Of a stretch of 64,000 nt of DNA, positions 1 to 64,000 are shown piece by piece (position 1 is the first letter of the stretch; every line of letters begins with the position of its first letter). The position numbers were made by a program, and so were the translations under genes. The DNA is from Entrophospora sp. SA101 (taxonomy: Eukaryota; Glomeromycota; Glomeromycetes; Entrophosporales; Entrophosporaceae). The notes under the pieces were generated by a model. The model was not told the origin of the DNA, did not search any database, and saw only the letters and a program-made list of their open reading frames with translations. Location: assembly GCA_958430865.1 (NCBI GenBank), contig CAUDNR010001269.1, forward strand, positions 519 to 64,518, given 5' to 3'.

Positions 1-954
1 AAAAGTGTAAAACTTACGTCGGCACTGTAAGATTTACACAATATTACATCGGCATTGTAAGATTTATGCAAGTTTACGCTAAATTAATTTCCTGATGATA
101 TATGAATTTTATACCCACAATCCAGGACTGCTCCTTAAATAACAGATAACTGACAAATTTAATAGCCCATATATTTGTAAGTAAATGTAGTTTTTTACTT
201 TTGATTCACATAGTTTGATATAAGATTTTTTTTATGTAACATAATAAATGCATGACTTTCTATGGGTGCAAAAAATCGATTACTATTATTATTACTATGA
301 AATTTAAAAAATTTGCCTGGATCGGCATTAATTAAATCATTCCTTAACTGGTGGATCACGAATTAGCTCATCGAAAGCTGCAGCTGGTATCCTTAATTAC
401 AATATAAACTAGAATAACGAGTTCACCATCATTGAAAGATTTTCTTTTAGGAAACAGTTGGAATTATTATGATTGTTTTCTGGATGTCCAGATTGCCCTT
501 TTTTGAAATTCATTTATAATTATAACATTAATTAAAGTGGAGTTTATCATTATACAGTAATATTAAACTTCTCTGTTGATCTGCAGGATACATCACACAA
601 CCAATATTTTTTTGTTTACATAAAATGAAGATTACATCTTTGAAACTATAGTATTATTAAAAAAGGAGCTAATCAAAAGACAGTATAATTAATAACAGCT
701 GAATTATGAACAAACAGCATATGGATCTTTGAGAAATCTTTGGTTTATTTTATTTTGCTCACTCTTTCATTCATCTATTCATTAATTAAAAGAAAATGTG
801 TAACTTCAAAAAACAGATAATGGGGAAACATAACATAGTTAATACTAGTAGATAATGAATAATATTACTATTTATATAACATCATATTAATATTTGTTTT
901 TTCAAAAAAACAGATCTACCAATTAAACATTGGGATTGGATTATTGTTCAAAGC
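1..954. other. Gene-free AT-rich stretch
   Basis: No supported gene. A short exon-like piece at 918-968 has an AAACAG acceptor on its left and a GTAAGT donor on its right, but no flanking exons could be joined to it. The same stretch recurs at 28025-28978. Confidence 0.5.
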
Positions 955-1480
955 ATAATGGTGGATGGTAAGTAATAATATATCAATTACTAATAATACT
1001 TCTTATTATATATATATAATGTATTAATGAGGTTTACTATTATGATTATTGTTACATATGCAACTGATTTATTATAATGGCTTATTGTTAACATGGTAAG
1101 TAATAATAATTTATTAATAATAATTTATTGTATAACATTCATTGTATTAATGGGTTTATTATTATGCATGTGACCATCAAGGTAATAATAATATATTACT
1201 AATAATTCTTATTGTATCAACGGGATTTACTGGTTTATTGTTACGCATGGTAAGTAATAATATAATAATTCTTATTAAATATATAACATTGTATTAATAT
1301 TTCTCTTCTTCCAAAATGAGATTTGCTATCACTATTATTGTTATGCACATGACCATCAAAGCATAACGCAGTAAGTAATAATATAATTTTTATTATATAT
1401 ATATATAACATTGTGATTAATATTTCTTTCTTCCAAAATGGTTCATAGTTAAACAATGGGTTATTTTTACACAACAATTA
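955..1480 (+). repeat. Degenerate tandem repeat with recurring GGTAAGTAATAAT
   Basis: Units of roughly 80 to 150 bp each contain a GTAAGTAATAAT-type core followed by AT-rich sequence and TATAACATTGTATTAA-like segments. Cores lie near 968, 1096, 1250 and 1370, with a weaker one near 1181. The repeat recurs at 28979-29504 and partly at 26295-26671. The core looks like a 5' splice site, but no open exon structure is seen. Short minus-strand frames here are low-complexity shadows. Confidence 0.6.
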
Positions 1481-1778
1481 AAGAAAAAAATTAGTTATCA
1501 TCATTATTATTGCTATTTATAAAATTTATTTGTATTTAAATAAATAAATAAAATTATTTAAAACAATATATTTTCTAGTAATTTTAAGAATAAATCAATT
1601 ATAAATCAAGTATAGTTCAGGTTTAATTTAAGTATAATTTAAGTATGGTTCAAGTATGATAAGTAGAAAATAAGTAGAAAATCATGCTTAATTTCTACTT
1701 AAATTTGCAAGGAACGAGAATGTTTTAAGTGTTTCCCCATAATAGTCAAAATGTGCTTAAATTACACTTGAAATATGC

Positions 1779-1864
1779 TTAAAACATACTTATTTCATGC
1801 TCAAAGCATTAATTAATTCTACTTAAATTAAGTGAGTTTTGAGCATGAAATAAGTATGTTTTAA
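1779..1864. repeat. Perfect 27-bp inverted repeat (hairpin)
   Basis: Arms at 1779-1805 and 1838-1864 are exact reverse complements, separated by 32 bases. The surrounding 1600-1778 is rich in related AAGTAT/TACTTAAA motifs, so the whole may be a foldback element. The right arm ends directly before the first readable codon of the glycoprotein pseudogene. The same hairpin is at 29803-29888. The 582-bp fragment at 26295 stops just before this repeat. Confidence 0.85.
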
Positions 1865-3454
1865 GTGTGCAAACTTTGCATAAGGCATTTTTCTCTGAAG
1901 GAGCTAACAAGCATTAGGATATGTGGTGGATTTCGCTACCAACCATGTCCAGGAATGAAAGATAAGTTGCATGTTGATGAAGAATATGCAATTTACTTTA
2001 ACAAAACATACAGTAACAATGCAATGAGATATCATGTGTTGAAAACTAGTAGTATTGATAATATTTCATATCCTTCCTATGATTTTATGATGTTGAATGT
2101 GACAAGCATACAGAAGGAGGGTTATGGAATTATTGACACAATGGTTGTAGATCATGGTAATGGTGGACTTTTAATAAATAATGCAATCAAACCCAATTTA
2201 AAAACCAATGGGAGTCTTAGCTGGTCAATTCAAGGCTTGTGGTTGTAACCACATGTCAGTTGTCATTCAACCAATCTCACAATAATTTCATGGGAAAACA
2301 ATACCTCCTCTTTGTTTACTGATTGGATAGGCTATGTGGTTATTAACAACACTGATATAAATTCACCATATATAAGTACAATCAATGATTGAGACCAATC
2401 AACCAATCTTCCAGCAAAAAGCAACTGGTATAGTCGTTTTATACAATCTCTTCTTATGCAAGAATTAAATATGACAGCAAATGGAACTTTTTTTGAGTCA
2501 CCTGTTCTTAAAGTTAATTTTGAGGAGCCAAAAACTGTTAATTCAGGAAAATCACTTAATAGTTATTTTGATTCTGATGTTAAATTTAACTCAACACTTA
2601 GCTTGTATGCTTTAATTGAGTGTGAATGATATGGTAAAGTAGACAATCTTACAAAAAATGTAGTTGGTGTTGACTGCTGGATATTACTTGGATTTCCCAT
2701 ACATACTACATGAGGAATTGAACAAACTTTGTACAGCTGTGCTAGTGTAGTTGAAGCAAGTGTAAAGACCATCAAATTGCAATCCAGTATAACAGGATCA
2801 ACTAATGTAATAGATGTGCAAACTATCCCAGCACAATGGTATATTGAAAAGGGAACCCTTAATATTGCTGAAATGAATCCTTGGTGGGGAGGAGTTGAAT
2901 TTGGAGAAAAACTTCCTAATAATAGTTTATTAGTAAGCAAAAATACTCTTTTATTACCAGCAGGAGCTTCCAACATATGGAGTATTAATGCCAATGCAAA
3001 TGCTGCTTCTGCTCCTGCTATGGCAGTTGACATGATGCGTAAGCTTGAGGATAGTTTAAAAGGTTATCGAGGAGATGGGATTGGAAATTTGGCGTTATTA
3101 CAACAATGGAAAGAAGAGGGATTAACTGAAAAGGATATAAGTGGTATGTACAAACGCCAGTGGAATGATATTATGATCAATATGGTGACTCCTACCAACC
3201 AGGCTAAAATCGTTGGTACCACTCAATTTACGGTGAACAAAACATGCTATGATGTACAGTTTGCTACACAGTACTTGATAGCCATGTTTGGTCTAATAAT
3301 TATATTCTACATACTTTTAGCAAGCCTTAGAAATGTAGATGCTTTCAATTCATTGATTAAAATTAGACATGTCGTTCAACAAATGGATCTTGGTAAAGTA
3401 ATAATAAATGTACTGGAATATGGAGAGGCAAACACAGTTGGCCCATCACAATAG
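1865..3454 (+). pseudogene. Broken membrane glycoprotein gene, copy 1
   Basis: One reading frame runs from about 1865 to the stop at 3452-3454 with no frameshift, but it is interrupted by TAA at 2246 and TGA at 2390, 2627 and 2711. The readable protein (about 525 residues) is rich in Asn-X-Ser/Thr sites and has a tryptophan-rich NPWWGG motif. One hydrophobic segment near the C terminus (about 3268-3327, FGLIIIFYILLASL) is followed by a short, more polar tail, which fits a single-pass surface protein. No start codon or signal peptide is visible, and the 5' end abuts a hairpin repeat. The family is not recognised. In copy 1 the codon at 2846 is GAA, so the last 241 codons stay open. In copies 2 and 3 it is TAA. 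Confidence 0.75.
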
Positions 3455-3959
3455 GTAAAAAAATTAATATCATTGGGCAAAAAAGGGTTTGAAAAACCCG
3501 ATCCTAGCAAAAACCCTTATCATGATTTATTTATTTGGAATTTTTTTATACATAATTTAATAATTCCTTCATGCTATGAAATAAAAGTTGCACATATGTG
3601 CTTTATTGACCCCATGAAAAATAAAATACGGAATTAACGTGTGTTAAATACGTTCTTAAAAATGTAAATTAACGTATTTACGGTTTTGAAAAAATTTCCC
3701 TATTCAAATTTAGTATTAGTGTGAAATTGAATTGGTACGGAATCAGCACAGAATTTGAAAAGTAAAAGGTGCATTTTAAATTGTAACACACTGAAAAGGT
3801 ACGTTTTTGGTTCCGCGCATAAGGCATGGAATTTGTGACATAATAATAAATGAATACATTTATTTTATTCATTATGATTATACAATATTTTATTTAAAAT
3901 CTATATCATCATCATTATCAATAATTTCAACATTTTAGATTTATATATTTAATATGCAA
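3455..3959. other. Gene-free stretch with TACGGAAT-type repeat scraps
   Basis: No gene is supported. At about 3735-3835 there are pieces of the GAAAAGGTACGTTTT/GGTACGGAAT repeat that also occurs at 21540-21775 and, inverted, at 53528-53730. The same content is at 31473-31977 and 56644-57148. Confidence 0.5.
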
Positions 3960-4225
3960 CGGTCGCATTTACTTCGTTGAGAATTATTTCGTCGACAATC
4001 ATTTCGTCGACACCCATTTCGTCGAAAATTATTTCATCCTCGAGCCAGAGACCGAACGAGTTAGATGTGAGGAGTGTGAGAAATTATTTAAGAAATTAGG
4101 TGAGGAAAGCGGGTTGTGTGGGAAGTGTGAGGAAAAATTTGTTTAATGAAGTTTTTTTTTTGTGACGAAATAATTTTCGACGAAATGAACTTTCGATGAA
4201 ACAAACTTTCGACGAAATGAATTCA
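3960..4225. mobile_element. Foldback (MITE-like) element with internal CxxC...CxxC frame, copy 1
   Basis: Ends are built of reiterated TTCGTCGAAAATTATTTC-type motifs on the left (3972-4035) and their reverse complements on the right (4162-4220), so the element can fold back. Between and through the left arm runs an open frame without an ATG, ending at 4146. Its C-terminal half contains CEECEKLF and LCGKCEEKF, a zinc-ribbon-like pair of CxxC motifs 16 residues apart. The FVENYF/FVDNHF repeats at its N-terminal end are simply the translated terminal repeats. This could be a captured gene fragment. No transposase is present. Confidence 0.6.
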
Positions 4226-4269
4226 GACCAAGCAATGTTATTATTATTATTAATTTATTAATTTTAAAA

Positions 4270-4912
4270 ATGTCGGATAGATTCGCCAGAAAAAATAACG
4301 AACAAGTAAAGTTAAAGAAACTTCAAGGCAAGTGTTATTAGAGTAATGTTAGTAGCCATTAGTTAAGATCTAGTTATATACAAACTTTGTAGAGAACCTT
4401 CTGAAGCAACAAAATAAACAATAAACATCAATGAGCATTTAAATGGTGATTTAAAAGCAAATGGAATAAAATCATCAACTCCTGGAAAGAAAAGAAAGTG
4501 TGTGAGCTTTTCGTCAGATGTTTCGAAGAAGACAGTGCACAAATTACCATAGACAGCAGAACTGTACCATAACAAGCAATTAGACCATGGCATAAATCAT
4601 GGCCAACAAGAAACAACTACTACAACTACCACCACTATTGTCTGATCAAGAACATTAAATACGTCAATTGACAATTATTTTATGGTTAATGGCCCATTAC
4701 ACTGAAATTCAACAGGAAATTCAACACTTACAACAACTGCAAGAACAACAAAAACAACAACAACAATTATAATTACAATAATTACAACAATAATAACAGC
4801 AGCAGCAGCAAAATCATGATCAACAAGAACAGCAACAACAACAATACCACACCTCAAATATTTGATTGTATTAATATATGAATTATTGAGAAATAAATCT
4901 GAACTTTCTTAC
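4270..4912 (+). pseudogene. Broken Gln/Thr-rich gene, copy 1
   Basis: A Met-initiated start at 4270 gives a basic peptide (MSDRFARKNNEQVKLKK) that closes after about 21 codons. Downstream, a frame from about 4411 encodes a basic STPGKKRKCVSFSS segment resembling RVxF-like phosphatase-docking contexts. It then continues through stops at about 4552 (TAG), 4642 (TGA) and 4700 (TGA) into CAA/ACA-rich codons (poly-Thr or poly-Gln depending on frame). In the Gln frame several CAA positions read TAA. No intron arrangement restores one frame. The coding style suggests a decayed gene, and the family is unknown. Equivalent sequences are at 32288-32930 and 57459-58101. Confidence 0.4.
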
Positions 4913-5690
4913 ATCTGTAGTTAATGGATGAATATATATATAATAAAATAAATGGAATTTCCTTATATCTATAATAAATAGAATTGGTGGGTGAATATGT
5001 ATAATAATAAAGCTCCTGACGGGTCGGGTTCGGGTTGATTTTGGGTTAATAAAAAAATTTTGTGATTTACATAAATTCAGATAATAAAATTAATTAAATA
5101 TAAAAGGCGAAACAGTTGTAATGGTTTAAAAGCTGCAATTGGTGTTATGCGTGACGCAAAACACAATTCATGATGCAAGGGATGCAGGACGCAATTCGTG
5201 ACTCAAGACGTAACTCAAGGAGATTCGTGATGCAATAGATACATAATTAAAGACACAAGGCTAGCGGATGATGGCCGGGAACTAACCATAGTTTAGGCCT
5301 AATCTTGCAGCGAAGTTGGCGAAACTTAAACTGCGGGTTGTTTTATTGAACAAAAAAAAAGAATTGATTTGTTTTATTATTACAAGCCGAATTAGGTCAA
5401 AAAAAGAATTATTTTTATGATGATCATAATCTTTTTTAATAAATATAAATAAATAATAGGAATGCAAATATAAAATATTAATAAAAAATACAAAACGTAA
5501 GAGACTATATAGATCACATGTCCGGCATACGATTGGACGGTACTTCGATAAATCCGTTTTATTTATCATAAAACTTTGGTCATGGTTTGACAATTTAACC
5601 ACAGTTTAGGAGTTTACCCATGGTTTAGGTAATTTTTAAGTTACGTCACTGAGTATATTAATATAAGATGTATAAATAAATTAGCCTATC
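4913..5690. other. Gene-free stretch with short internal repeats
   Basis: A GGGTCGGGTTCGGGTT run lies near 5019. GACGCAA/GTGATGCAA-type short repeats lie at 5150-5240, and AACCATAGTTTAGG-like direct repeats near 5285, 5597 and 5615. The minus-strand frame at 5282-5602 has no recognisable features and low coding quality, so it is not called a gene. Confidence 0.4.
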
Positions 5691-6610
5691 AAATTAAAAC
5701 TTATAGTTAGTGTCCAACTAAAACTTTTGGGCTTAGAGATTAACTACATGTGAATATGCAGTGTGATTCAAAAAAATGGTGGTTGTGACGTAAAATTATT
5801 CAAAGTTGTCAAAAAGATTCCCATTTTTTTTAATAATAGTAAATGTAGTTAGATGATTTACATGTTTGCTAACACAAAATTAGAAGCATAACGTAAACCA
5901 TTTTGCATTTTTGGATGAATGGTATCCATTCACAAAAGGAAGACAAACATATATTCCTTTGTGCCATTGAGAAAAATTAAAGAATCCGTTCTATTGAACA
6001 CAAAGGGTCTTCCTTATAAGGTTACACAAAACTTGCCACGTTTTATTGGACAAGTTATTCGCTGTTTCAACACACCAATTTGCAGTTAAACGCATAATGT
6101 GTCAATTTCACAATTTACTGTTTAATGACATATGAGAAAAAGGTTACAAAAGTTCCGTACCCCGATACTAACTACACGTCACTTTGAAGCTCGGGTAAAG
6201 CTCATTTGAACGACAAGTGGAGTCGTAAGTCCTTACAGATAAAATAGCATTTGATCCTTTTCATTGGTGGCATAAATGCCAGTTTGTAGATTACCAAAAT
6301 CACGGCAAAAAGTAATGACATGGAGAGGAATTTCATTGATATCATGGTTGGGCCTTACATGTTAACATATTGCAGAACTAGCTTTTACCTGCTCCACAAA
6401 GGTCGCATGATAGAAACTGGCGTTTGCGATAATCCGAAGCAAACATCACGTTTTGCGAAGATTACATTGCTGAGAATAGGATTGACTTGATTGACTGGCC
6501 ATTCAATAGACCTGATCTCAATCCGATGGAGAACATGTGGTAAAGAAGAACGCTTAAAAATTTGATGAATTGAAGCAATTTATGGTTGAAGAATGCCTCA
6601 GTAGACAGTT
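5691..6610 (+). pseudogene. Dead Tc1/mariner transposase, copy 1
   Basis: Fragments of a Tc1/mariner-type DDE transposase are scattered over several frames. A KVMTWRGIS segment lies at about 6310, corresponding to the VMVWG block around the second catalytic region. A clear C-terminal block at about 6436-6537 reads DWPFNRPDLNPMENMW and is followed at once by a stop. The PDLNPMENMW motif is the signature of the third catalytic region in this family. Multiple stops and frame changes show the element is inactive. The terminal repeats were not located with certainty. Confidence 0.72.
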
Positions 6611-8118
6611 AAAATATTATTATGTCTGTGAAAAAGAGACGTGAATTAGTTTTAGAAAAAAACGATTATAGAATTTCTTATTAATTTAAATAATATACTT
6701 TTTACATATCACAATTTGTAACTTAAAAAGGCTTTAAACATCTAACGAATGATATATTAGCATAATACAAGAATTCAGCAATGAAACATTCTATGACAAT
6801 TCTATGAATTATATCTTAATACTATGAAGTTGAGAAGCCATGCAAAACTTATGACGGCTGTGTTTGGTTATTTCTTTTAATATGATACATAGAACACAAG
6901 CTAAGATGGTTCAAAAAAAAAACAATTGAGCGGGCACACACAAATCCATTCTAGATAAAAAAAAGATAGACGGGTACTAAGATCCAGGAGAAAGGAGAGA
7001 CACACTGAAATTGATTAATAATCGGGACGATTGATTGATTGAATTGATTGATAATATTAATGCAGTACATATTCAATATCAAACAACATAAAAGGAAATA
7101 CGTGAAATACAGAAGAAGCTCACGAAATAGAGAGAAAAGCAAAAGAAGGATTCACCAAGCTTAATTTACAAACTTATTTATTCATATATTGATTCACGTT
7201 ATTTTAAATATGTTAAATTTGATCGTTAATTTTATCGTTTTTGATTGGTTGAGTTTTTTTAAATGATGCCGAAATCATGTCCTTTTTAAGTTAAACGAAA
7301 TATACATTATTGAAGAAGAATAAAAGTGGCTTTAATAAATTCATTTACAGCAAATGAAACCAAAATATTATCAAGCGTTTTATTATTGTATGAGATTTCT
7401 TTGGTCAAGTATAAATGTCCCAATACCCTGGTCTATAAGATACAAAGTAAAGTATTCAAATTATAATATTAAAAACTTGCGCGATAACTCTTTAAGTTTC
7501 GATTTTCTATGTATATGCATGCGCAGACTTGAATAAATGGCATCATGGAATAAATATATTATAGCGTTAAAATGCTGTATCAAACAAAATTACCTGATTT
7601 ACATGGCCACTTAACAGTTGTTTCTTCAAGAAATAATTTATCATCATCGAATTTAATATGTTCGTTTGTTCTTTTTCAAATAATGCCATAATATGTTTCT
7701 CAGATATTATAAGATATATACACATCTATGCATGCATTTTAAATGCACGTGTGCACACACAGACTATCAAAATTCAAAACTTCACTATCTGGTCCATCGT
7801 AAATAACACATGTAAAGCAGAAGTTTGAATATGATTTTGTGTTTTAGCTGCTGTGAAAAATATGTTCAACGACAACATTAGAAAAGTTTTCCGAGTATAC
7901 GCATGCATATTTTACATTTTGTGGATATGTATATTAATATTAATATATACTGTAATAGTAAGTACTATGGCGTGCAGATTTTTGGTTTTAAATTGTGTGC
8001 ATATTTGTCTTAATGCATATAATATATATTATCAGAAAAGGAAAAAAAATCACCCATTATAATAATAAAGGGGTTTTTTCCTAGGGGTAAGTAAATATAT
8101 TAATTTAGAATATATGGG
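6611..8118. other. Gene-free stretch
   Basis: AT-rich, with short frames on both strands (for example 7354-7536 and 7853-8062 on plus). None shows splice-linked continuation, known motifs or coding-like composition. The same content is at 34629-36136 and 59800-61307. Confidence 0.4.
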
Positions 8119-8214
8119 GCATGCTCACCCAATCCAAGAGGTTTAACCTTAGGATCGACGTCTCAAATAGTAAGGTTAACCCTTGTTGTAGACCCTTGGA
8201 TTGGCTGGGCATGC
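8119..8214. mobile_element. Small hairpin (MITE-like) element, copy 1
   Basis: Left end GCATGCTCACCCAATCCAAG pairs with the right end ending GGATTGGCTGGGCATGC, and an inner pair GGTTTAACCTTA/TAAGGTTAACCC extends the stem. The total is about 96 bp with no coding content. Target-site duplications were not resolved. Confidence 0.7.
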
Positions 8215-10535
8215 AACAAAGTGAACATTTGTACTACGAATGATTACAGGACCAATTAAATAATTGGGGGACATGTAATTGTTGTAAATTATTATTTAAA
8301 AATCAAAACAGTTGTCGAAGGCAGTTTAAGACCTATGAAATTCCCTGTTGAATGGAACACCTCACCACCAGACTTAAGGTTGCTTGCCAAAAATCCTCCA
8401 GAAATCAATCAGCAGGGTTTCGGCAGGTTACACATTAATTGTTTATTATACTTGTATGTTTTTCATATGACTCAATTAATTGCATCAAAAAGTCACCCCA
8501 TTGAGTCAAGTGTAAGCATGTTAGCTGAAGTTGACTCTCTTAATAAAGGTGTAATAGTTTTTCATAAATGCTGAAGTTAATTTTATTAGTTGCCAAAATT
8601 ATATCTGAAATTATTTGGACTCTTTGATTAAATATTAAAAGGCTGGGTAGATTTTTTATGCCTATTGATACAAAGAATATTGTAAATACAAAATTGCTTA
8701 CCAAAATTGATTTTTTCAAAAACCATTTTAACTAACATTCTTATCAACCTATTTCTACCATAGTTAACAAGTTTGGAAATTGTCCATACAATGAATAAGC
8801 AAAATCAGTCAATTCTCTTGGAAAATATATTAACTTAAAAAAAATAAATACAATGGAACAAATTACAATAGATAGATTCATGTCTTGAAATTTTTTTTTT
8901 AATTTAAAAACTTTAATTAGTGTCACATGAGTCACCAATATGTGCAGCCAATAAATGCTTTAATTCCCTAAATGCCCAAGGGGGGTGCACTTAGGGAGGT
9001 TGACTGTAACAGTTTTAAATCGAATTTAATTAATGAAAAGAAGCACGAACTAAATTTATGGTATTTTACCAAAATCATTTTCCTGTTGCTGCTTCATTAT
9101 ATACAACATAACAATCCATTGCAGATAAGAAGGATGGTCGAATTTATCTCACGCATAAAATTTTAAATTTTGCAATGTTCTCAAAGAAGGATTTTCTTAT
9201 ACATTCCATTTTCTTGGCTGGCATTACCTAACTCGCCGGGATCAATTTTGGAGCTAGAATTTCAGCTGATGTTCTTTTGTTCTGATTACTGGCCGCGCGG
9301 GTCTATTTTTCATTTCCAAACTTTAGTCTGGTAGACAGCCTCTACTTTTTCTCGGGTGGTTTGTGAGCGCACTCACCTAAATTTAAACCTATTGAATTTA
9401 CTTCAACTGTCACTGCAAAAGTAGGAATCCCAATATTTTGCAATAAACTCCGCAAAAAATTGTTTATGAACCAGAGCTCGTTGAACAACACCCAAAAAAA
9501 TAAGATAAATGAATTAATTGCCTTGGCATGAAAATTTTCGATAATTTATATACAACCCTAGAAGAAAATATAACAATAAATACAATAGCCTTTTTTAGAA
9601 ATATAATGTTTTCCCCCGCCAAGTAGTATTACAAAATTATTCATCATTGATCGTCCGACCACGAATTAATAATAATAATAATTAATTAAATTAATCAAAC
9701 CAATTTTTTATTAGTTATCGAAAAAATACTCATAATAAGCATAACTACGCCACAAGGTAAGAATAACCTGATTTGTTCAAAACCATTTTTTAGAACTAGA
9801 ACATATTAATATTAATATTACTGTATAAAAATGGTAAATTTGGAACCACGTAAAAAAGCTAAGCTATTTATTTATTTACTATATGTTATCATAATTACGA
9901 GGGTCCCAGAGGTTGTTTTTTGCTGGAGACCGAAAATGACGTAAATGTTAGCATAGTCAGTATGGTTATTACATCCTTCTTTCTTGTATGGCATTTTCCC
10001 TTTAAAGCACTACCATAATTTTTCTTCAAGTATTTAGAACCTTGAGTTGAACCCTTGAAAAATCTTTGGTGGGCTTTGCAATCAATGATTGGCTGCTGTG
10101 GCTTAATACCTCTTTATATGGATAGATAGGTGCAATTGAACACAAAAATAAAAAAAACTTGAGTTTATTAATAGAAAATCCTAAAAAAAAAAAAAAAAGT
10201 AAAAAAAATTTATTAATTTATTAAATTATGTACTACCACTTTTTAATGTAATAATAATAAATAAAACAATAAATAATAAATAAATAATAATGCTACATAT
10301 ACATGAACGGACGAACCTTCTTCTCAAAAGAAAAACTCTTAGAAAATTTTTATTTATTTTAATTTTAATAAAAACTATTCTATAAAATAAAATAAGATAA
10401 AAATATTCTTATTTTTTTCTTTATTTTTAATATTCTGATCATTACTGACCTCTTTTAACTTAAAAGAGATTAACATTCATTCTTTTAATTAATATATAAA
10501 TAAAAAATTGTTATAATACTTAATAATAGTAATAC
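8215..10535. other. Gene-free stretch upstream of the ADAM gene
   Basis: A frame at 8335-8574 (79 codons) starts with ATG but has no recognisable domain. 9180-9480 is less AT-rich and may be an old coding relic, but no frame is long. Near the gene there are poly-A (about 10183-10198), TAA-type repeats, and AT-rich sequence that presumably includes the ADAM promoter, though no specific element was identified. The same content is at 36233-38553 and 61404-63724. Confidence 0.4.
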
Positions 10536-13500
10536 ATGGGCTCATTACCCCTTTTTAATCAATGGTTTATATGGCTTTTTGCCTTGACAACATGGATAAT
10601 ATGTGTTAATGGTAAATTATTATTTTCATTCAATTTCAAAACCATAACTCAAACTTAAAAATATTAATTATTTATATCTTTTTCAGCTGATAGTTATTCA
10701 TCAAACCCTTTGACATATTTGGAATTTGTTAGTGATCCTAGTATAGATATACTTCCTAGAAATAGATTTGAGTCACACAATCAAGAATATTTAATACAAG
10801 ATTTAGATGATAAATCATTACGACATGATGACTCAATGCGTATACGATTTATAGCGTTTAATAGGACATTTAATCTTCATCTTGAACCTCATTACGATTT
10901 ATTACATCCCGAAGCCACCATCACCATACACCATGCAGACGATACCAGCACCACAACACGATTACTACTTGACGATCATAGGTTGTATAAAGGATATTTA
11001 TTAGATGTTAAATTTACCGATAAACGATTAACTGAGGATATGATTGGTTTAAAGAGAAAATCCTTATCAGAAGAACTTTTTGGTTCTGTTGGTGTCCTTG
11101 GTTGGGCAAGTATTCATGTTCACGATGATGGAAGGTAATTATTATTATTAACTTTGAAAAAAAAAATTTTTTCAATGTAATATTTAACAATAGCAAATTA
11201 ATTGTAATTTTTTTTTTTTAAGTCGATCAAACAGGAAACCAATATTTGAAGGCGCATTTTCCTATAATAATGATATATATCATATTAAAACTATTGAGAA
11301 TTTCAAAATAACCCGGTTTAGAGATGATCCAGCAATACCCAATCTTTCTGCACGTCATATTAATCATCGTTATGCTACAATGGTTATATTTCGTGATTCT
11401 GATATAAAAAATTCTGATCATAATCGAAGATCTTTAACCGATGAAAATGTACAAACTTGCGGCAGCGATGATATTCTTGGTATCAAAACTAACAGAAATG
11501 ACCATCTTTTAACTCATACTGATGAAAATTCTAATCCACTTTCTCCATGGTGGAAAAGATTGGACTTTAGTTCAAACATAAAAGGAAACTTGGATGTTTC
11601 CTATCATAGTAATAGTAATAATTTATTTAAAAGAGGTGCGTCAGGTTGTCCAGATGCTAGAAAAGTTGCTTATATGGTTTGTTTTTATTCTTTAACTTCA
11701 TTTATTTTATACACTTATCCCCCCAAAAAAAGAACTCTTCTAATCAAGTCATTTATCCTATCAATGAATATTCATTCAAAAAAAAATGTGTTTAGGGTGC
11801 AGCCGCTGATTGTACATATGGTATGTTATAATATTATTGTCGGTTTTTAATTCTAATTATATTATAAATTACTTTATAAATTCAAAATAAACCTTATTTC
11901 TCTAAAAAAAACCCCTCCCTTTTTTTTCCTAGTCACTTCCTATAAATCGAGTGATGCAGCTCGAAAACAAATACTCACTGATTGGGGTACTGCATCTGCT
12001 GTTTATGAAAGAACTTTTAATGTGACGCTTGGTCTTATAAAAATTGATATACGTGATGCAGCATGTCCTGCTACCCCCGATAGTGCCGTACTTTGGAATA
12101 GAGATTGTAGTGATAGTTATTCTATAAATACTCGTTTAAGTGATTTTAGTTTATGGAGGGGAAAACTTACTAGTAAGTATATTTCCCTCGTTTATTTAAC
12201 TATTTTTTTCGATATATAAAAATTTATTTTTTGGATAAATACGATCAAATTTTAATTGTTAAATATTTTATAGATGATACTGACACAGCTTTATGGCATC
12301 TTATGTCAAAGTGCAAGTAAGTTAAAGAAAAAAAATATTATTTAGTAGTTATATCATCATCAACAACATTGATCTCATGTTATTTTAAAAAAAAATTTTT
12401 TTAACTTGTGATGCTTGCTTTTAACTAATACATATTTATAGTACTGGATCAAAAGTTGGTGTTGCATGGTTAGGTCAGCTTTGTACGATTACAGCAAATT
12501 CTCAAACCACTGGTAAATAAATAAAAACTTTTTTATATTATATTTCCATGTATTTATTATATGTATTATATATTTAATCACTCGTAATCATAATTAAAAT
12601 TAATTTAGAACAAGGTACAGCGTATGTATCAGGAACTGGTGTATCAACCATAGTTAAAGATGAATGGAAAGTTGTTGCTCATGAAATTGGACATGGATTT
12701 GGTAATTAACATTAAAAGTTAATAATATTTACTAATTATAATTGTAATAGTATTTAACATTATAATAATAATGATGATGATGATGATGATGAATTTTAGG
12801 TGCATCTCATGATTGCATAGCAGCAAATTGTCCTTGTACCAGTGCTGCTCAATGTAATTGTTGTCCATTATCCTCAACTGTTTGTGATGCCGGCGGCAAA
12901 TATATAATGAACCCAACTAGCAATGTGCTTACAAATGATTTTAGGTAAAAAAAGTTTTATTTATTTATTAAGGTTACTTAAATATATGCATATTAATTAA
13001 TATATATTATTTTATTTAGTCCTTGTTCAATTCAAGATGTATGTAGTATGCTATTAAGTATTGGTACTTGTCTTAAAGGTTTGTATTTATATTATATTAT
13101 ATTATATTATATATATATATATATATGCATTCTTAAAAAGATATGAAATTTATAAATTTATAAAATTTATAAATATACATTTAATTTTTAGATCCAAGTG
13201 ATACAAATTCAAAAATTTTAAGTCAAGCTATGTGCGGAAATGGTTTAAAAGAAGATGGCGAAGAGTGTGATTGTGAGTAATAGTTAGTTACTAATTATAT
13301 ACATATATATATATATTCAATATTCTTTACTCAAAATAAAATTTTATATAAACAGGTGGCACTGATTGTCAAAATGATCAATGTTGTGATGGCACTACTT
13401 GTAAATTCAAACCTGGTGCTGTATGCGCGTAAGTTGACTATTTATTTTGATTGCTAGAATAATTTAATGAATAAAGTATTCATATAACTAACAATTTGTA

Positions 13501-15146: not shown

Positions 15147-15383
15147 GATGAAGTTAAAAATTATAAAATTGTCATATATACATTCACACACATATATACA
15201 TAACGGGGGGTGTAAATTGTGTACAGTAATTTTTTAAAAAAGATATATTTATTTTTTGTTTAATTGTTAGAACTATTTATGTAATAATATAATTTTATAA
15301 TTTAAAAAAAGAAAGGTTTATTTAATTGTGATTTTAGAAATAACAATTAATATTAATAAAAAAACTAATAAAAATGGTTATTT

Positions 15384-16551: not shown

Positions 16552-16728
16552 ATAATACTTGGCGATTTGATGAGGGAAATGAAAATTCCAATAATCAAAT
16601 CATTATACCCACCAAATATAGGTTTGTACTGAAACATTATTTTTTATTCTTAAAAAAGAAAAGTCTGCCTCGAAATCAATTTTTCAACTAGCATTTTTCT
16701 CCCGAATTTTTTGTTGTCGTTTTTCATC

Positions 16729-16767
<39 letters not shown>

Positions 16768-47018: not shown

Positions 47019-47022
47019 GAGT

Positions 47023-47232
47023 TACAGTCTACTCTCTCTATAACGACCCTCTCTATAACGACCACCAAGTAAAATTTCTCTATAACGAACTTCCCTTTTG
47101 TCCCCGTTTCAATTTTTTATAATTAATTTCTCTCCCTATAACGACCATCTTAATAAACTCTCTCTATAACGACCAAAAGCAGAGAAATTAGATATAGGGA
47201 CAGAAGGTTCGTTATAGAGAGAGTGAACTGTA
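47023..47232. mobile_element. pogo/Tc1-like MITE, copy 2
   Basis: Same element as 19005-19214. Confidence 0.85.
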
Positions 47233-54345: not shown

Positions 54346-55447
54346 AACTATTGAATGATTGATAAAACGTTTGTTAGTATATTTTCGATCACTCCTATAC
54401 AACTATTGAATAATTGATAAAACATTTGTTAGTATGTTTTGCTCATAGATCTTGTCCTTATTGCTTACTTCGATCACTCCTACACAAACTATTGAATAAT
54501 TGATAAAACGTTCGTTAGTATGTTTTGTTCATAGATCTTGTCCTTAATGCTTACTTCAATCACTCCTATACAACTATTGAATAGTTGATAAAACGTTCCT
54601 TAGTATGTTTTGTTCATAGATCTTGTCCTTAATGCTTACTTCGATCACCCCTATACAATTATTGAATAGTTGATAAAACGTTCGTTAGTATGTTTTGTTC
54701 ATAGATCTCACCGCTATCGCCAACTAATATGAATTTACGTTTGGGTTGTCCTTAATGCTTACTTCGATCACTCCTATATATACAATTATTGCATAGTTGA
54801 TAAAACGTTTGTTAGTATGTTTTGTTCATAGATCTTGTCCTTGATGCTTACTTCGATCACTCCTATACAATTATTGAATAGTTGATAAAACGTTCCTTAG
54901 TATGTTTTGTTCATAGATCTTGTCCTTAATGCTTGAATAATTGATAAAATGTTTGTTAGTATGTTTTGTTCATAAACCTTGTCCTTAATGCTTACTTCAA
55001 TCACTCTATACAAACTATTGAATAATTGATAAAACGTTTGTTAGTGTATTTTGTTCATAGATCTTGTCCTTAATGCTTACTTCAATCACTCCTATACAAC
55101 TATTGAATAATTGATAAAACGTTTGTTAGTATGTTTTGTTCATAGATTTTGTCCTTAATGCTTACTTCGATCACTCCTACACAATTATTGAATAGTTGAT
55201 AAAACGTTCCTTAGTATGTTTTGTTCATAGATCTTGTCCTTAATGCTTACTTCGATCACTCCTATACAACTATTGAATAATTGATAAAACATTTGTTAGT
55301 ATGTTTTGTTCATAGATCTTGTCCTTAATGCTTACTTCGATCGCTCCTACACAAACTATTGAATAGTTGATAAAACGTTTGTTAGTATGTTTTGTTCATA
55401 GATCTTGTCCTTAATGCTTACTTCGATCACTCCTATACAACTATTCA
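54346..55447 (+). repeat. Satellite array B (~85-bp units, about 12-13 units)
   Basis: Regular units of TATTGAATAATTGATAAAAC-GTTTGTTAGTATGTTTTG-TTCATAGATCTTGTCCTTAA-TGCTTACTTCGATCACTCCTATACAAC. Spacing between CTTGTCC motifs is 85-86 bp. One unit near 54706-54750 carries an unrelated insertion of about 40 bp and one near 54930 is truncated. It is related to array A (shared TATTGAATAATTGATAA and TTCATAGATCTTG). The array runs without a gap into copy 3 of the duplicated block. Confidence 0.93.
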
Positions 55448-56643
55448 ATGTCAGTTGTCATTCAACCAATCTCACAATAATTTCATGGGAAAACAATACC
55501 TCCTCTTTGTTTACTGATTGGATAGGCTATGTGGTTATTAACAACACTGATATAAATTCACCATATATAAGTACAATCAATGATTGAGACCAATCAACCA
55601 ATCTTCCAGCAAAAAGCAACTGGTATAGTCGTTTTATACAATCTCTTCTTATGCAAGAATTAAATATGACAGCAAATGGAACTTTTTTTGAGTCACCTGT
55701 TCTTAAAGTTAATTTTGAGGAGCCAAAAACTGTTAATTCAGGAAAATCACTTAATAGTTATTTTGATTCTGATGTTAAATTTAACTCAACACTTAGCTTG
55801 TATGCTTTAATTGAGTGTGAATGATATGGTAAAGTAGACAATCTTACAAAAAATGTAGTTGGTGTTGACTGCTGGATATTACTTGGATTTCCCATACATA
55901 CTACATGAGGAATTGAACAAACTTTGTACAGCTGTGCTAGTGTAGTTGAAGCAAGTGTAAAGACCATCAAATTGCAATCCAGTACAACAGGAGCAATTAA
56001 TATAACAGATGTGCAAACTATCCCAGCACAATGGTATATTTAAAAGGGAACCCTTAATATTGCTGAAATGAATCCTTGGTGGGGAGGAGTTGAATTTGGA
56101 GAAAAACTTCCTAATAATAGTTTTTTAGTAAGTGAAAATACTCTTTTGTTACCAGCAGGAACTTCCAACATATGGGATATCGATGCAAATGCTGCTTCTG
56201 CTCCTGTTATTGCAGTTGACATGATGCGTAAGCTTGAGGATAGTTTAAAAGGTTATCGAGGAGATGGGATTGGAAATTTGGCGTTATTACAACAATGGAA
56301 AGAAGAGGGATTAACTGAAAAGGATATAAGTGGTATGTACAAACGCCAGTGGAATGATATTATGATCAATATGGTGACTCCTACCAACCAGGCTAAAATC
56401 GTTGGTACCACTCAATTTACGGTGAACAAAACATGCTATGATGTACAGTTTGCTACACAGTACTTGATAGCCATGTTTGGTCTAATAATTATATTCTACA
56501 TACTTTTAGCAAGCCTTAGAAATGTAGATGCTTTCAATTCATTGATTAAAATTAGACATGTCGTTCAACAAATGGATCTTGGTAAAGTAATAATAAATGT
56601 ACTGGAATATGGAGAGGCAAACACAGTTGGCCCATCACAATAG
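55448..56643 (+). pseudogene. Broken membrane glycoprotein gene, copy 3 (5' truncated)
   Basis: Identical to copy 2 from its codons near 30277 onward, including the stop at 56041. The first third is missing because the duplicated block begins here, against satellite DNA. The apparent open frame starting at 55405 joins satellite sequence to the gene fragment by chance. Confidence 0.75.
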
Positions 56644-57148
56644 GTAAAAAAATTAATATCATTGGGCAAAAAAGGGTTTGAAAAACCCGATCCTAGCAAA
56701 AACCCTTATCATGATTTATTTATTTGGAATTTTTTTATACATAATTTAATAATTCCTTCATGCTATGAAATAAAAGTTGCACATATGTGCTTTATTGACC
56801 CCATGAAAAATAAAATACGGAATTAACGTGTGTTAAATACGTTCTTAAAAATGTAAATTAACGTATTTACGGTTTTGAAAAAATTTCCCTATTCAAATTT
56901 AGTATTAGTGTGAAATTGAATTGGTACGGAATCAGCACAGAATTTGAAAAGTAAAAGGTGCATTTTAAATTGTAACACACTGAAAAGGTACGTTTTTGGT
57001 TCCGCGCATAAGGCATGGAATTTGTGACATAATAATAAATGAATACATTTATTTTATTCATTATGATTATACAATATTTTATTTAAAATCTATATCATCA
57101 TCATTATCAATAATTTCAACATTTTAGATTTATATATTTAATATGCAA

Positions 57149-57414
57149 CGGTCGCATTTACTTCGTTGAGAATTATTTCGTCGACAATCATTTCGTCGAC
57201 ACCCATTTCGTCGAAAATTATTTCATCCTCGAGCCAGAGACCGAACGAGTTAGATGTGAGGAGTGTGAGAAATTATTTAAGAAATTAGGTGAGGAAAGCG
57301 GGTTGTGTGGGAAGTGTGAGGAAAAATTTGTTTAATGAAGTTTTTTTTTTGTGACGAAATAATTTTCGACGAAATGAACTTTCGATGAAACAAACTTTCG
57401 ACGAAATGAATTCA
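57149..57414. mobile_element. Foldback element with CxxC frame, copy 3
   Basis: Same sequence as 3960-4225 at offset 53189. Confidence 0.6.
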
Positions 57415-57458
57415 GACCAAGCAATGTTATTATTATTATTAATTTATTAATTTTAAAA

Positions 57459-58101
57459 ATGTCGGATAGATTCGCCAGAAAAAATAACGAACAAGTAAAG
57501 TTAAAGAAACTTCAAGGCAAGTGTTATTAGAGTAATGTTAGTAGCCATTAGTTAAGATCTAGTTATATACAAACTTTGTAGAGAACCTTCTGAAGCAACA
57601 AAATAAACAATAAACATCAATGAGCATTTAAATGGTGATTTAAAAGCAAATGGAATAAAATCATCAACTCCTGGAAAGAAAAGAAAGTGTGTGAGCTTTT
57701 CGTCAGATGTTTCGAAGAAGACAGTGCACAAATTACCATAGACAGCAGAACTGTACCATAACAAGCAATTAGACCATGGCATAAATCATGGCCAACAAGA
57801 AACAACTACTACAACTACCACCACTATTGTCTGATCAAGAACATTAAATACGTCAATTGACAATTATTTTATGGTTAATGGCCCATTACACTGAAATTCA
57901 ACAGGAAATTCAACACTTACAACAACTGCAAGAACAACAAAAACAACAACAACAATTATAATTACAATAATTACAACAATAATAACAGCAGCAGCAGCAA
58001 AATCATGATCAACAAGAACAGCAACAACAACAATACCACACCTCAAATATTTGATTGTATTAATATATGAATTATTGAGAAATAAATCTGAACTTTCTTA
58101 C
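57459..58101 (+). pseudogene. Broken Gln/Thr-rich gene, copy 3
   Basis: Same sequence and same disabling stops as at 4270-4912. Confidence 0.4.
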
Positions 58102-58879
58102 ATCTGTAGTTAATGGATGAATATATATATAATAAAATAAATGGAATTTCCTTATATCTATAATAAATAGAATTGGTGGGTGAATATGTATAATAATAAA
58201 GCTCCTGACGGGTCGGGTTCGGGTTGATTTTGGGTTAATAAAAAAATTTTGTGATTTACATAAATTCAGATAATAAAATTAATTAAATATAAAAGGCGAA
58301 ACAGTTGTAATGGTTTAAAAGCTGCAATTGGTGTTATGCGTGACGCAAAACACAATTCATGATGCAAGGGATGCAGGACGCAATTCGTGACTCAAGACGT
58401 AACTCAAGGAGATTCGTGATGCAATAGATACATAATTAAAGACACAAGGCTAGCGGATGATGGCCGGGAACTAACCATAGTTTAGGCCTAATCTTGCAGC
58501 GAAGTTGGCGAAACTTAAACTGCGGGTTGTTTTATTGAACAAAAAAAAAGAATTGATTTGTTTTATTATTACAAGCCGAATTAGGTCAAAAAAAGAATTA
58601 TTTTTATGATGATCATAATCTTTTTTAATAAATATAAATAAATAATAGGAATGCAAATATAAAATATTAATAAAAAATACAAAACGTAAGAGACTATATA
58701 GATCACATGTCCGGCATACGATTGGACGGTACTTCGATAAATCCGTTTTATTTATCATAAAACTTTGGTCATGGTTTGACAATTTAACCACAGTTTAGGA
58801 GTTTACCCATGGTTTAGGTAATTTTTAAGTTACGTCACTGAGTATATTAATATAAGATGTATAAATAAATTAGCCTATC

Positions 58880-59799
58880 AAATTAAAACTTATAGTTAGT
58901 GTCCAACTAAAACTTTTGGGCTTAGAGATTAACTACATGTGAATATGCAGTGTGATTCAAAAAAATGGTGGTTGTGACGTAAAATTATTCAAAGTTGTCA
59001 AAAAGATTCCCATTTTTTTTAATAATAGTAAATGTAGTTAGATGATTTACATGTTTGCTAACACAAAATTAGAAGCATAACGTAAACCATTTTGCATTTT
59101 TGGATGAATGGTATCCATTCACAAAAGGAAGACAAACATATATTCCTTTGTGCCATTGAGAAAAATTAAAGAATCCGTTCTATTGAACACAAAGGGTCTT
59201 CCTTATAAGGTTACACAAAACTTGCCACGTTTTATTGGACAAGTTATTCGCTGTTTCAACACACCAATTTGCAGTTAAACGCATAATGTGTCAATTTCAC
59301 AATTTACTGTTTAATGACATATGAGAAAAAGGTTACAAAAGTTCCGTACCCCGATACTAACTACACGTCACTTTGAAGCTCGGGTAAAGCTCATTTGAAC
59401 GACAAGTGGAGTCGTAAGTCCTTACAGATAAAATAGCATTTGATCCTTTTCATTGGTGGCATAAATGCCAGTTTGTAGATTACCAAAATCACGGCAAAAA
59501 GTAATGACATGGAGAGGAATTTCATTGATATCATGGTTGGGCCTTACATGTTAACATATTGCAGAACTAGCTTTTACCTGCTCCACAAAGGTCGCATGAT
59601 AGAAACTGGCGTTTGCGATAATCCGAAGCAAACATCACGTTTTGCGAAGATTACATTGCTGAGAATAGGATTGACTTGATTGACTGGCCATTCAATAGAC
59701 CTGATCTCAATCCGATGGAGAACATGTGGTAAAGAAGAACGCTTAAAAATTTGATGAATTGAAGCAATTTATGGTTGAAGAATGCCTCAGTAGACAGTT
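58880..59799 (+). pseudogene. Dead Tc1/mariner transposase, copy 3
   Basis: Same relic as at 5691-6610. The DLNPMENMW block lies near 59703-59729. Confidence 0.72.
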
Positions 59800-61307
59800 A
59801 AAATATTATTATGTCTGTGAAAAAGAGACGTGAATTAGTTTTAGAAAAAAACGATTATAGAATTTCTTATTAATTTAAATAATATACTTTTTACATATCA
59901 CAATTTGTAACTTAAAAAGGCTTTAAACATCTAACGAATGATATATTAGCATAATACAAGAATTCAGCAATGAAACATTCTATGACAATTCTATGAATTA
60001 TATCTTAATACTATGAAGTTGAGAAGCCATGCAAAACTTATGACGGCTGTGTTTGGTTATTTCTTTTAATATGATACATAGAACACAAGCTAAGATGGTT
60101 CAAAAAAAAAACAATTGAGCGGGCACACACAAATCCATTCTAGATAAAAAAAAGATAGACGGGTACTAAGATCCAGGAGAAAGGAGAGACACACTGAAAT
60201 TGATTAATAATCGGGACGATTGATTGATTGAATTGATTGATAATATTAATGCAGTACATATTCAATATCAAACAACATAAAAGGAAATACGTGAAATACA
60301 GAAGAAGCTCACGAAATAGAGAGAAAAGCAAAAGAAGGATTCACCAAGCTTAATTTACAAACTTATTTATTCATATATTGATTCACGTTATTTTAAATAT
60401 GTTAAATTTGATCGTTAATTTTATCGTTTTTGATTGGTTGAGTTTTTTTAAATGATGCCGAAATCATGTCCTTTTTAAGTTAAACGAAATATACATTATT
60501 GAAGAAGAATAAAAGTGGCTTTAATAAATTCATTTACAGCAAATGAAACCAAAATATTATCAAGCGTTTTATTATTGTATGAGATTTCTTTGGTCAAGTA
60601 TAAATGTCCCAATACCCTGGTCTATAAGATACAAAGTAAAGTATTCAAATTATAATATTAAAAACTTGCGCGATAACTCTTTAAGTTTCGATTTTCTATG
60701 TATATGCATGCGCAGACTTGAATAAATGGCATCATGGAATAAATATATTATAGCGTTAAAATGCTGTATCAAACAAAATTACCTGATTTACATGGCCACT
60801 TAACAGTTGTTTCTTCAAGAAATAATTTATCATCATCGAATTTAATATGTTCGTTTGTTCTTTTTCAAATAATGCCATAATATGTTTCTCAGATATTATA
60901 AGATATATACACATCTATGCATGCATTTTAAATGCACGTGTGCACACACAGACTATCAAAATTCAAAACTTCACTATCTGGTCCATCGTAAATAACACAT
61001 GTAAAGCAGAAGTTTGAATATGATTTTGTGTTTTAGCTGCTGTGAAAAATATGTTCAACGACAACATTAGAAAAGTTTTCCGAGTATACGCATGCATATT
61101 TTACATTTTGTGGATATGTATATTAATATTAATATATACTGTAATAGTAAGTACTATGGCGTGCAGATTTTTGGTTTTAAATTGTGTGCATATTTGTCTT
61201 AATGCATATAATATATATTATCAGAAAAGGAAAAAAAATCACCCATTATAATAATAAAGGGGTTTTTTCCTAGGGGTAAGTAAATATATTAATTTAGAAT
61301 ATATGGG

Positions 61308-61403
61308 GCATGCTCACCCAATCCAAGAGGTTTAACCTTAGGATCGACGTCTCAAATAGTAAGGTTAACCCTTGTTGTAGACCCTTGGATTGGCTGGGCA
61401 TGC
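61308..61403. mobile_element. Small hairpin element, copy 3
   Basis: Same as 8119-8214. Confidence 0.7.
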
Positions 61404-63724
61404 AACAAAGTGAACATTTGTACTACGAATGATTACAGGACCAATTAAATAATTGGGGGACATGTAATTGTTGTAAATTATTATTTAAAAATCAAAACAG
61501 TTGTCGAAGGCAGTTTAAGACCTATGAAATTCCCTGTTGAATGGAACACCTCACCACCAGACTTAAGGTTGCTTGCCAAAAATCCTCCAGAAATCAATCA
61601 GCAGGGTTTCGGCAGGTTACACATTAATTGTTTATTATACTTGTATGTTTTTCATATGACTCAATTAATTGCATCAAAAAGTCACCCCATTGAGTCAAGT
61701 GTAAGCATGTTAGCTGAAGTTGACTCTCTTAATAAAGGTGTAATAGTTTTTCATAAATGCTGAAGTTAATTTTATTAGTTGCCAAAATTATATCTGAAAT
61801 TATTTGGACTCTTTGATTAAATATTAAAAGGCTGGGTAGATTTTTTATGCCTATTGATACAAAGAATATTGTAAATACAAAATTGCTTACCAAAATTGAT
61901 TTTTTCAAAAACCATTTTAACTAACATTCTTATCAACCTATTTCTACCATAGTTAACAAGTTTGGAAATTGTCCATACAATGAATAAGCAAAATCAGTCA
62001 ATTCTCTTGGAAAATATATTAACTTAAAAAAAATAAATACAATGGAACAAATTACAATAGATAGATTCATGTCTTGAAATTTTTTTTTTAATTTAAAAAC
62101 TTTAATTAGTGTCACATGAGTCACCAATATGTGCAGCCAATAAATGCTTTAATTCCCTAAATGCCCAAGGGGGGTGCACTTAGGGAGGTTGACTGTAACA
62201 GTTTTAAATCGAATTTAATTAATGAAAAGAAGCACGAACTAAATTTATGGTATTTTACCAAAATCATTTTCCTGTTGCTGCTTCATTATATACAACATAA
62301 CAATCCATTGCAGATAAGAAGGATGGTCGAATTTATCTCACGCATAAAATTTTAAATTTTGCAATGTTCTCAAAGAAGGATTTTCTTATACATTCCATTT
62401 TCTTGGCTGGCATTACCTAACTCGCCGGGATCAATTTTGGAGCTAGAATTTCAGCTGATGTTCTTTTGTTCTGATTACTGGCCGCGCGGGTCTATTTTTC
62501 ATTTCCAAACTTTAGTCTGGTAGACAGCCTCTACTTTTTCTCGGGTGGTTTGTGAGCGCACTCACCTAAATTTAAACCTATTGAATTTACTTCAACTGTC
62601 ACTGCAAAAGTAGGAATCCCAATATTTTGCAATAAACTCCGCAAAAAATTGTTTATGAACCAGAGCTCGTTGAACAACACCCAAAAAAATAAGATAAATG
62701 AATTAATTGCCTTGGCATGAAAATTTTCGATAATTTATATACAACCCTAGAAGAAAATATAACAATAAATACAATAGCCTTTTTTAGAAATATAATGTTT
62801 TCCCCCGCCAAGTAGTATTACAAAATTATTCATCATTGATCGTCCGACCACGAATTAATAATAATAATAATTAATTAAATTAATCAAACCAATTTTTTAT
62901 TAGTTATCGAAAAAATACTCATAATAAGCATAACTACGCCACAAGGTAAGAATAACCTGATTTGTTCAAAACCATTTTTTAGAACTAGAACATATTAATA
63001 TTAATATTACTGTATAAAAATGGTAAATTTGGAACCACGTAAAAAAGCTAAGCTATTTATTTATTTACTATATGTTATCATAATTACGAGGGTCCCAGAG
63101 GTTGTTTTTTGCTGGAGACCGAAAATGACGTAAATGTTAGCATAGTCAGTATGGTTATTACATCCTTCTTTCTTGTATGGCATTTTCCCTTTAAAGCACT
63201 ACCATAATTTTTCTTCAAGTATTTAGAACCTTGAGTTGAACCCTTGAAAAATCTTTGGTGGGCTTTGCAATCAATGATTGGCTGCTGTGGCTTAATACCT
63301 CTTTATATGGATAGATAGGTGCAATTGAACACAAAAATAAAAAAAACTTGAGTTTATTAATAGAAAATCCTAAAAAAAAAAAAAAAAGTAAAAAAAATTT
63401 ATTAATTTATTAAATTATGTACTACCACTTTTTAATGTAATAATAATAAATAAAACAATAAATAATAAATAAATAATAATGCTACATATACATGAACGGA
63501 CGAACCTTCTTCTCAAAAGAAAAACTCTTAGAAAATTTTTATTTATTTTAATTTTAATAAAAACTATTCTATAAAATAAAATAAGATAAAAATATTCTTA
63601 TTTTTTTCTTTATTTTTAATATTCTGATCATTACTGACCTCTTTTAACTTAAAAGAGATTAACATTCATTCTTTTAATTAATATATAAATAAAAAATTGT
63701 TATAATACTTAATAATAGTAATAC

Positions 63725-64000
63725 ATGGGCTCATTACCCCTTTTTAATCAATGGTTTATATGGCTTTTTGCCTTGACAACATGGATAATATGTGTTAATG
63801 GTAAATTATTATTTTCATTCAATTTCAAAACCATAACTCAAACTTAAAAATATTAATTATTTATATCTTTTTCAGCTGATAGTTATTCATCAAACCCTTT
63901 GACATATTTGGAATTTGTTAGTGATCCTAGTATAGATATACTTCCTAGAAATAGATTTGAGTCACACAATCAAGAATATTTAATACAAGATTTAGATGAT
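63725..64000 (+). CDS. ADAM metalloprotease, copy 3 (5' part only, cut by window end)
   Basis: Exon 1 is 63725-63800 (signal peptide) and exon 2 starts at 63876 and runs past the window end. The sequence matches the first 66 or so codons of the other two copies. Whether the rest of the gene is intact cannot be seen. Confidence 0.85.

What the first reader, a model, noticed from the sequence alone, without database searches (positions are those of the whole stretch)
1..64000. Three direct, near-perfect copies of a ~20-kb gene-bearing block within 64 kb
Copies at 1-20132, 28025-48150 and 55448-64000 keep constant offsets over kilobases. They share homopolymer and microsatellite lengths (16-base poly-A, 12-unit GAT, AT runs), yet have different flanks. 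Such identity at fast-mutating sites means either very recent tandem duplication or homogenisation, or haplotypes or repeat copies joined by the assembler. If real, it multiplies an intact ADAM protease and a C2 gene while leaving the DRG2-type gene single in the window.
Basis: seen in the sequence. Interest (0 to 1): 0.75.

Follow-up and report, generated by a model that had tools for sequence, protein, structure and literature searches.

The report
Falsely repeated block in fungal assembly
The 20-kb block appears three times here almost certainly because the genome assembly of this plant-root symbiotic fungus wrote the same stretch down repeatedly, not because the fungus carries three copies.

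Summary
In detail: the block lies at 1-20132, 28025-48150 and 55448 onward, copy 3 running past the window to 73321. The copies are letter-for-letter identical for 17-18.5 kb. All internal differences sit in 2790-3022, where two variants are combined in different phases. A 10-N gap and a stray 582-bp piece of the block lie between copies 1 and 2.

The decisive control is the rest of the assembly. In four Pfam family searches, 10 gene sets recur with equal scores inside one contig, proteasome and TCP1 genes among them. All 10 are 100% identical over 600-2000 bp, 5 with an inverted copy (DNA: 24, 26, 56, 58).

The host is an arbuscular mycorrhizal fungus close to Entrophospora/Claroideoglomus SA101. 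The published SA101 genome came from amplified single nuclei, and one of its three workflows produced spurious duplicates (PMC6987183).

Verdict: false segmental duplication, about 0.93. The ADAM gene is intact and ordinary; no C2 domain was found on this contig. No reads were available for a direct test.

The parts
1..20132 (+). Block copy 1 (its left edge lies at or before the window start and could not be seen)
28025..48150 (+). Block copy 2; identical to copy 1 except the stretch matching 2790-3022
55448..64000 (+). Block copy 3, starting at block position 2253; it runs past the window to equivalent position 73321, then follows copy 1's right flank
2790..3022 (+). The only stretch inside the block in which copy 1 differs from copies 2 and 3 (22 alignment columns: 16 substitutions and a 6-bp indel); mosaic of two variants, with an 82-bp identical stretch (2847-2928) between the two groups of sites
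26285..26294 (.). Run of 10 N between copy 1 and copy 2 (read as a scaffold gap)
26295..26876 (+). Stray 582-bp piece of the block (= 1104-1685, 99.66%) directly after the gap
26877..28024 (+). Left flank of copy 2; its first 862 bp also occur at 100% on contig C1712, and part belongs to a dispersed repeat (92% on C1336 and C1495)
10536..15143 (+). ADAM-type (M12B) metalloprotease gene, multi-exon, intact by prediction, in copy 1 (again from 38554 in copy 2 and 63725 in copy 3)
20133..21559 (+). Right flank shared verbatim by copies 1 and 3 but not copy 2; relatives on five other contigs align through the 20132 boundary at 68-78%
48151..48985 (+). Right flank of copy 2; a 91% match on C329 starts within 10 bp of the junction, with no block sequence before it
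49075..51305 (-). DRG2 GTPase gene, found once in the assembly
54384..55449 (+). 85-bp satellite array abutting the start of copy 3

Best explanation
The three copies are a false segmental duplication made by assembly. The same roughly 20-kb locus was assembled more than once, each version ending or branching at a repeat (satellite, dispersed element, low-complexity run), and the alternative versions were laid head to tail on one contig instead of being merged. The 233-bp difference is a phasing error between two related variants present in the data. Shown here: the verbatim identity, the mosaic stretch, the gap with a stray piece, and the same verbatim repetition elsewhere in the assembly. 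Inferred: that this assembly came from amplified single nuclei and merged assemblies like those published for a very close relative.
For: (1) Exact identity over 17,110, 17,874 and 18,537 bp for the three pairs, with all internal differences in 233 bp. (2) That stretch is mosaic: contig C1712 carries copy 1's letter at 6 of 6 differing columns in 2790-2846 and copy 2's state at 16 of 16 in 2929-3022; right of that it is identical to the copies in the 200-column windows examined, left of it 6-10% off. The phase flips across 82 identical bases. (3) A 10-N gap followed at once by a 582-bp piece of the block. (4) Assembly-wide control: four Pfam families of my choice were searched (PF00227, PF00118, PF00493, PF00168). 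They showed 10 sets of equal-score hits inside one contig (4, 2, 0 and 4 sets). DNA was compared for all 10 and all 10 are 100.000% identical over 600-2000 bp, including a proteasome gene four times in C1256 and three times in C2; 5 of 10 sets include an inverted copy. (5) By my grouping, 12 of 17 proteasome groups and 7 of 8 TCP1 groups occur at two or more places, while only 4 MCM genes were found where six are expected (recalled). Missing plus duplicated core genes fits uneven amplification and poor merging better than polyploidy. (6) The published genome of SA101, very close by DRG2 (97% to P0122), came from MDA-amplified single nuclei; its authors report increasing duplication of single-copy genes when normalised per-nucleus SPAdes assemblies were merged with Lingon (PMC6987183, Results read).
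Against: No reads or depth were available, so the junctions were not tested directly. The assembly held here (101.35 Mb, 2123 contigs) equals no row of that paper's Table 1, and the paper's combined workflow 3 had few duplicates, so how this assembly was made is inferred. The three copies have different outer flanks, as real dispersed duplicates would. No N lies between copies 2 and 3. MCM genes showed no in-contig repeat. The ADAM core was seen on no other contig. A genuine duplication collapsed to one graph edge would also be re-expanded as identical copies.
Confidence: 0.93

Rival explanations
1. A real, very recent segmental triplication (direct copies with 7-8 kb spacers), or gene conversion keeping the copies identical, that gives the fungus three ADAM genes.
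For: Copies are long, in the same orientation, at similar spacing (28,024 and 25,171 bp) and with different flanks; beyond short repeat pieces the ADAM core matches nowhere else in the assembly (40 of 70 candidates scored).
Against: Zero differences over 17-18.5 kb, microsatellites included. The same verbatim pattern occurs for unrelated genes on other contigs, 5 of 10 sets with an inverted copy; that would need many simultaneous duplications. Gap and stray fragment between copies 1 and 2.
Confidence: 0.04
2. Two haplotypes or two nuclear genotypes of one locus joined end to end.
For: One stretch (2790-3022) differs between copy 1 and copies 2/3 at 22 alignment columns; contigs C1068 and C2070 look like two non-verbatim versions of one region.
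Against: Three copies, not two; no other difference in the block; the variable stretch is a mosaic when set against a third sequence, C1712.
Confidence: 0.02
3. Amplification chimeras: molecules rearranged during multiple displacement amplification were sequenced and assembled faithfully.
For: 5 of 10 in-contig repeat sets include an inverted copy; C1712 folds back near block positions 3777/1753. Passages of PMC10449900 say that virtually all duplications and inversions in long reads of amplified single cells were chimeras; the abstract of PMC13265396 reports pervasive palindromic reads.
Against: In those passages 81.5% of false events were inversions and lengths were usually under 5 kb; here the block is about 20 kb and direct. 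This is a variant of the artefact reading rather than a case for real copies.
Confidence: 0.01

Closest known systems
False segmental duplications from mis-assembly (Kelley and Salzberg 2010, PMC2864568: outline and one-line abstract, start of the longer abstract in listing 31; Ko et al. 2022, PMC9516828: outline and abstract)
   Same: Near-identical duplicates in an assembly that overstate gene copy number.
   Different: By those abstracts the main source is divergent haplotypes of diploids; here the copies are verbatim and genes recur up to four times in one contig, direct or inverted.
Duplicated single-copy genes in the Claroideoglomus claroideum/luteum SA101 single-nucleus assemblies (Montoliu-Nerin et al. 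2020, PMC6987183: Results section read, passages)
   Same: Very closely related fungus by DRG2; the authors report spurious duplication growing as per-nucleus assemblies are merged in workflow 2.
   Different: The assembly in hand (101.35 Mb, 2123 contigs) matches no row of their Table 1; their workflow 3 showed few duplicates. In-contig verbatim repeats were not described in what I read.
Fungal ADAM/M12B metalloproteases of Glomeromycotina (Rhizophagus irregularis 61%, R. clarus 59%)
   Same: Propeptide, metalloprotease and disintegrin parts present.
   Different: Nothing unusual seen in the gene itself.

Membership tests
False segmental duplication by mis-assembly | Copies more alike than independent evolution would leave them | tested here: met
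   0 differences in runs of 17,110-18,537 bp, microsatellites included
False segmental duplication by mis-assembly | Same error affects normally single-copy genes elsewhere in the assembly | tested here: met
   10 of 10 equal-score in-contig sets from four family searches are verbatim identical at DNA level, 6 of them proteasome or TCP1 genes; none seen for MCM
False segmental duplication by mis-assembly | Gap or broken joins between copies | tested here: met
   10-N run then 582-bp stray piece between copies 1 and 2; no N between copies 2 and 3
False segmental duplication by mis-assembly | Read depth of the block equals single-copy depth | not testable with these tools
   no reads held
False segmental duplication by mis-assembly | No read or mate pair spans the junctions | not testable with these tools
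   no reads held
Uncollapsed haplotypes | Allelic differences spread along the copies | tested here: not met
   all internal differences in 233 of about 20,130 bp
ADAM (M12B) metalloprotease | Reprolysin propeptide, M12B catalytic and disintegrin domains | tested here: met
   PF01562, Reprolysin_2/_4/_5 and PF00200 hits on separate frames; P0001 964 aa
   25 matches in the assembly, none on C1052

The most novel reading that the evidence does not exclude
The fungus really carries three verbatim copies of a 20-kb ADAM-bearing block, and other loci in like manner, kept identical by very recent duplication or continuous homogenisation: a genome-wide wave of large direct and inverted duplications in a lineage long thought asexual.
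Probability: 0.03. Interest if true: 0.7.

Novelty: not a real feature. Interest (0 to 1): 0.07.

Why it matters
It matters as a warning. Gene counts, gene-family expansion and synteny taken from this assembly are likely to be inflated, because a core gene can appear up to four times verbatim inside one contig. Claims of ADAM expansion or of recent segmental duplication in this fungus should not be based on it. If the copies were real, they would be a striking case of genome-wide recent duplication, which unamplified long reads could settle at once.

Tried and rejected
Mobile element carrying the block: beyond short repeat pieces the ADAM core (12800-14700) matches nowhere else in the assembly (40 of 70 candidates scored, so a lower bound); only the block edges and the small family at 1889-3777 have relatives elsewhere among the parts I searched. 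Rejected.

Polyploidy or whole-genome duplication: would not by itself put verbatim copies inside one contig, and only 4 MCM genes were found (the expected six, MCM2-7, is recalled, and the search goes exon by exon and may miss some). Rejected.

C2 gene in the block: not found (also a crude motif scan). Attribution of the assembly to a named deposit: a paper search for the contig number listed three papers, none of use by title and abstract; sizes in Table 1 of PMC6987183 do not match. A paper search for duplication in AM fungi matched 110 papers, and the eight listed are all about plant gene families; no claim about the literature is built on it. A term search in the main text of PMC10512289 (further AM-fungal single-nucleus assemblies) found no 'duplicated' and no 'chimeric'.

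The control therefore rests on four Pfam families that I chose (three as normally single-copy gene sets, one to test the C2 claim) and on equal-score repeat hits. Within those four families one further partial, inverted, unequal-score pair (TCP1 pieces on C483) was not fetched or compared.

Full report
What is in the sequence. The window is part (519-64518) of contig C1052, 81,511 bp, of an assembly of 101,348,593 bp in 2123 contigs. Self-alignment confirms three direct copies of a block: window 1-20132, 28025-48150 and 55448 to 73321, the last running past the window. Every difference between copy 1 and the others, apart from the block ends, lies in 2790-3022.

The flanks. Copies 1 and 3 share the right flank to 21559 and then part in satellite-like repeats; copy 2 leaves the block at 48150 into another sequence. 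On five other contigs, relatives of the block end align through position 20132 into the copy 1/copy 3 flank at 68-78%, whereas a 91% relative of copy 2's flank on C329 begins within 10 bp of the junction and has no block sequence before it. Copy 3 starts at block position 2253 directly after an 85-bp satellite array. Between copies 1 and 2 there is a run of 10 N, followed immediately by a 582-bp piece of the block, followed by 1148 bp that lead into copy 2. Those 1148 bp, in two overlapping pieces, and the first 1753 bp of the block occur again, in reverse, on contig C1712 at 99-100%.

The variable stretch is a mosaic. At the 22 alignment columns where copy 1 and copy 2 differ, C1712 has copy 1's letter at 6 of 6 columns in 2790-2846 and copy 2's state at 16 of 16 columns in 2929-3022; further right it is identical to the copies in the 200-column windows examined, and to the left it is 6-10% away from them. 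The switch falls across 82 identical bases. Two variants have thus been combined in different phases, which is what a short-read graph does when an identical stretch is longer than its word length (inference).

The decisive control. If the triplication were a property of this locus, other loci should not show it. Proteasome genes (PF00227) formed 17 groups by my grouping of places and scores (14 genes would be expected, recalled; a group may be a piece of a gene). 12 of 17 groups occur at two or more places and 4 of 17 occur repeatedly within one contig: C1256 four times, C2 three times, C714 twice, C1683 twice. TCP1/HSP60 genes (PF00118) formed 8 groups, 7 at two or more places, 2 with equal scores within one contig (C1455, C636). 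A partial inverted pair with unequal scores on C483 was not tested. MCM genes (PF00493): 4 found where six are expected (recalled), 2 of the 4 on two contigs, none repeated within a contig. C2-domain genes (PF00168): 4 in-contig sets (C956, C97, C32, C704). DNA was compared for all 10 equal-score in-contig sets: 10 of 10 are 100.000% identical over 600-2000 bp, 5 with an inverted copy and 5 direct only. Repeat hits also show two to four equal-score places in single contigs. A true history would need very recent, perfect duplication at many unrelated places at once, in both orientations; an assembly that lays alternative versions of one locus end to end explains all of it.

Whose genome. The ADAM model is 61% identical to Rhizophagus irregularis and 45-64% to the other Glomeromycotina proteins among the 120 listed, partial ones included. 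The DRG2 model is 97% identical over its length to a protein of Entrophospora sp. SA101, and its exons align to SA101 proteins with very few mismatches. SA101, named Claroideoglomus claroideum/luteum in the paper, was sequenced from MDA-amplified single nuclei. In two of three workflows per-nucleus assemblies were merged with Lingon, and all three were scaffolded on a nanopore assembly; the authors report that single-copy genes became increasingly duplicated in workflow 2, which merged normalised per-nucleus assemblies, and that few were duplicated in workflow 3 (PMC6987183, Results section; passages). The assembly in hand fits the first picture but equals no row of that table, so I infer the kind of process, not the deposit. 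Its 322,579-bp contig is longer than the largest contig of every row of that table except 2n (338 kb), the scaffolded form of workflow 2; total size and contig number still differ.

Genes. The ADAM gene looks intact: 964-aa prediction P0001; propeptide, catalytic and disintegrin matches on successive frames. P0001's 90% cluster stands for 5 sequences on 3 contigs, the longest 103,319 bp, so other public contigs than this one encode it; I could not look at them. The DRG2 region matches in full only once in the assembly. No C2 domain was found on this contig. The frame at 2714-3454 is open in copy 1 and has a stop in copy 2; copy 3 is identical to copy 2 there.

Results against this reading. No reads were available; flanks of the three copies do differ; there is no N between copies 2 and 3; MCM genes showed no in-contig repeat; the ADAM core was seen on no other contig, so cross-contig redundancy was not seen for it; the published workflow 3 had few duplicates. 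None of these outweighs the verbatim repetition found elsewhere in the assembly. Verdict: assembly artefact, confidence 0.93.

Noticed in passing
54384-55449, 52953-53328 and 21789-22228: Satellite family with units of about 85 bp, inverted at 52990-53704 relative to 21611-22327, at or near points where the copies part or start.
   Followed up: partly
27170-27970 with 98-365: Dispersed repeat of which C1336 and C1495 hold 92-94% relatives that skip about 150 bp between the two parts.
   Followed up: partly
1889-3777, with relatives on C1712, C1596, C1624, C18: Small diverged family (about 70-96%) without a Pfam match in the frames tested; copies 2 and 3 carry an in-frame stop that copy 1 lacks.
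   Followed up: partly
C1712:35228-39378: Fold-back: a 95-96% relative of block 1889-3777 joined, with 6 bp overlap, to the reverse of block 1753-1 at 100%.
   Followed up: partly
contigs C1068 and C2070: Both carry a proteasome and an MCM gene at like distances, the proteasome scores slightly different: probably two versions of one region.
   Followed up: no
14659-14777: 36-bp tandem repeat, 3.3 copies, in the coding tail of the ADAM gene.
   Followed up: no
49256-49327 (DRG2), proteins P0122 and P0140: Two DRG2 predictions named Entrophospora sp. SA101 differ, besides gene-model differences, at one residue; the window agrees with P0140 there.
   Followed up: no
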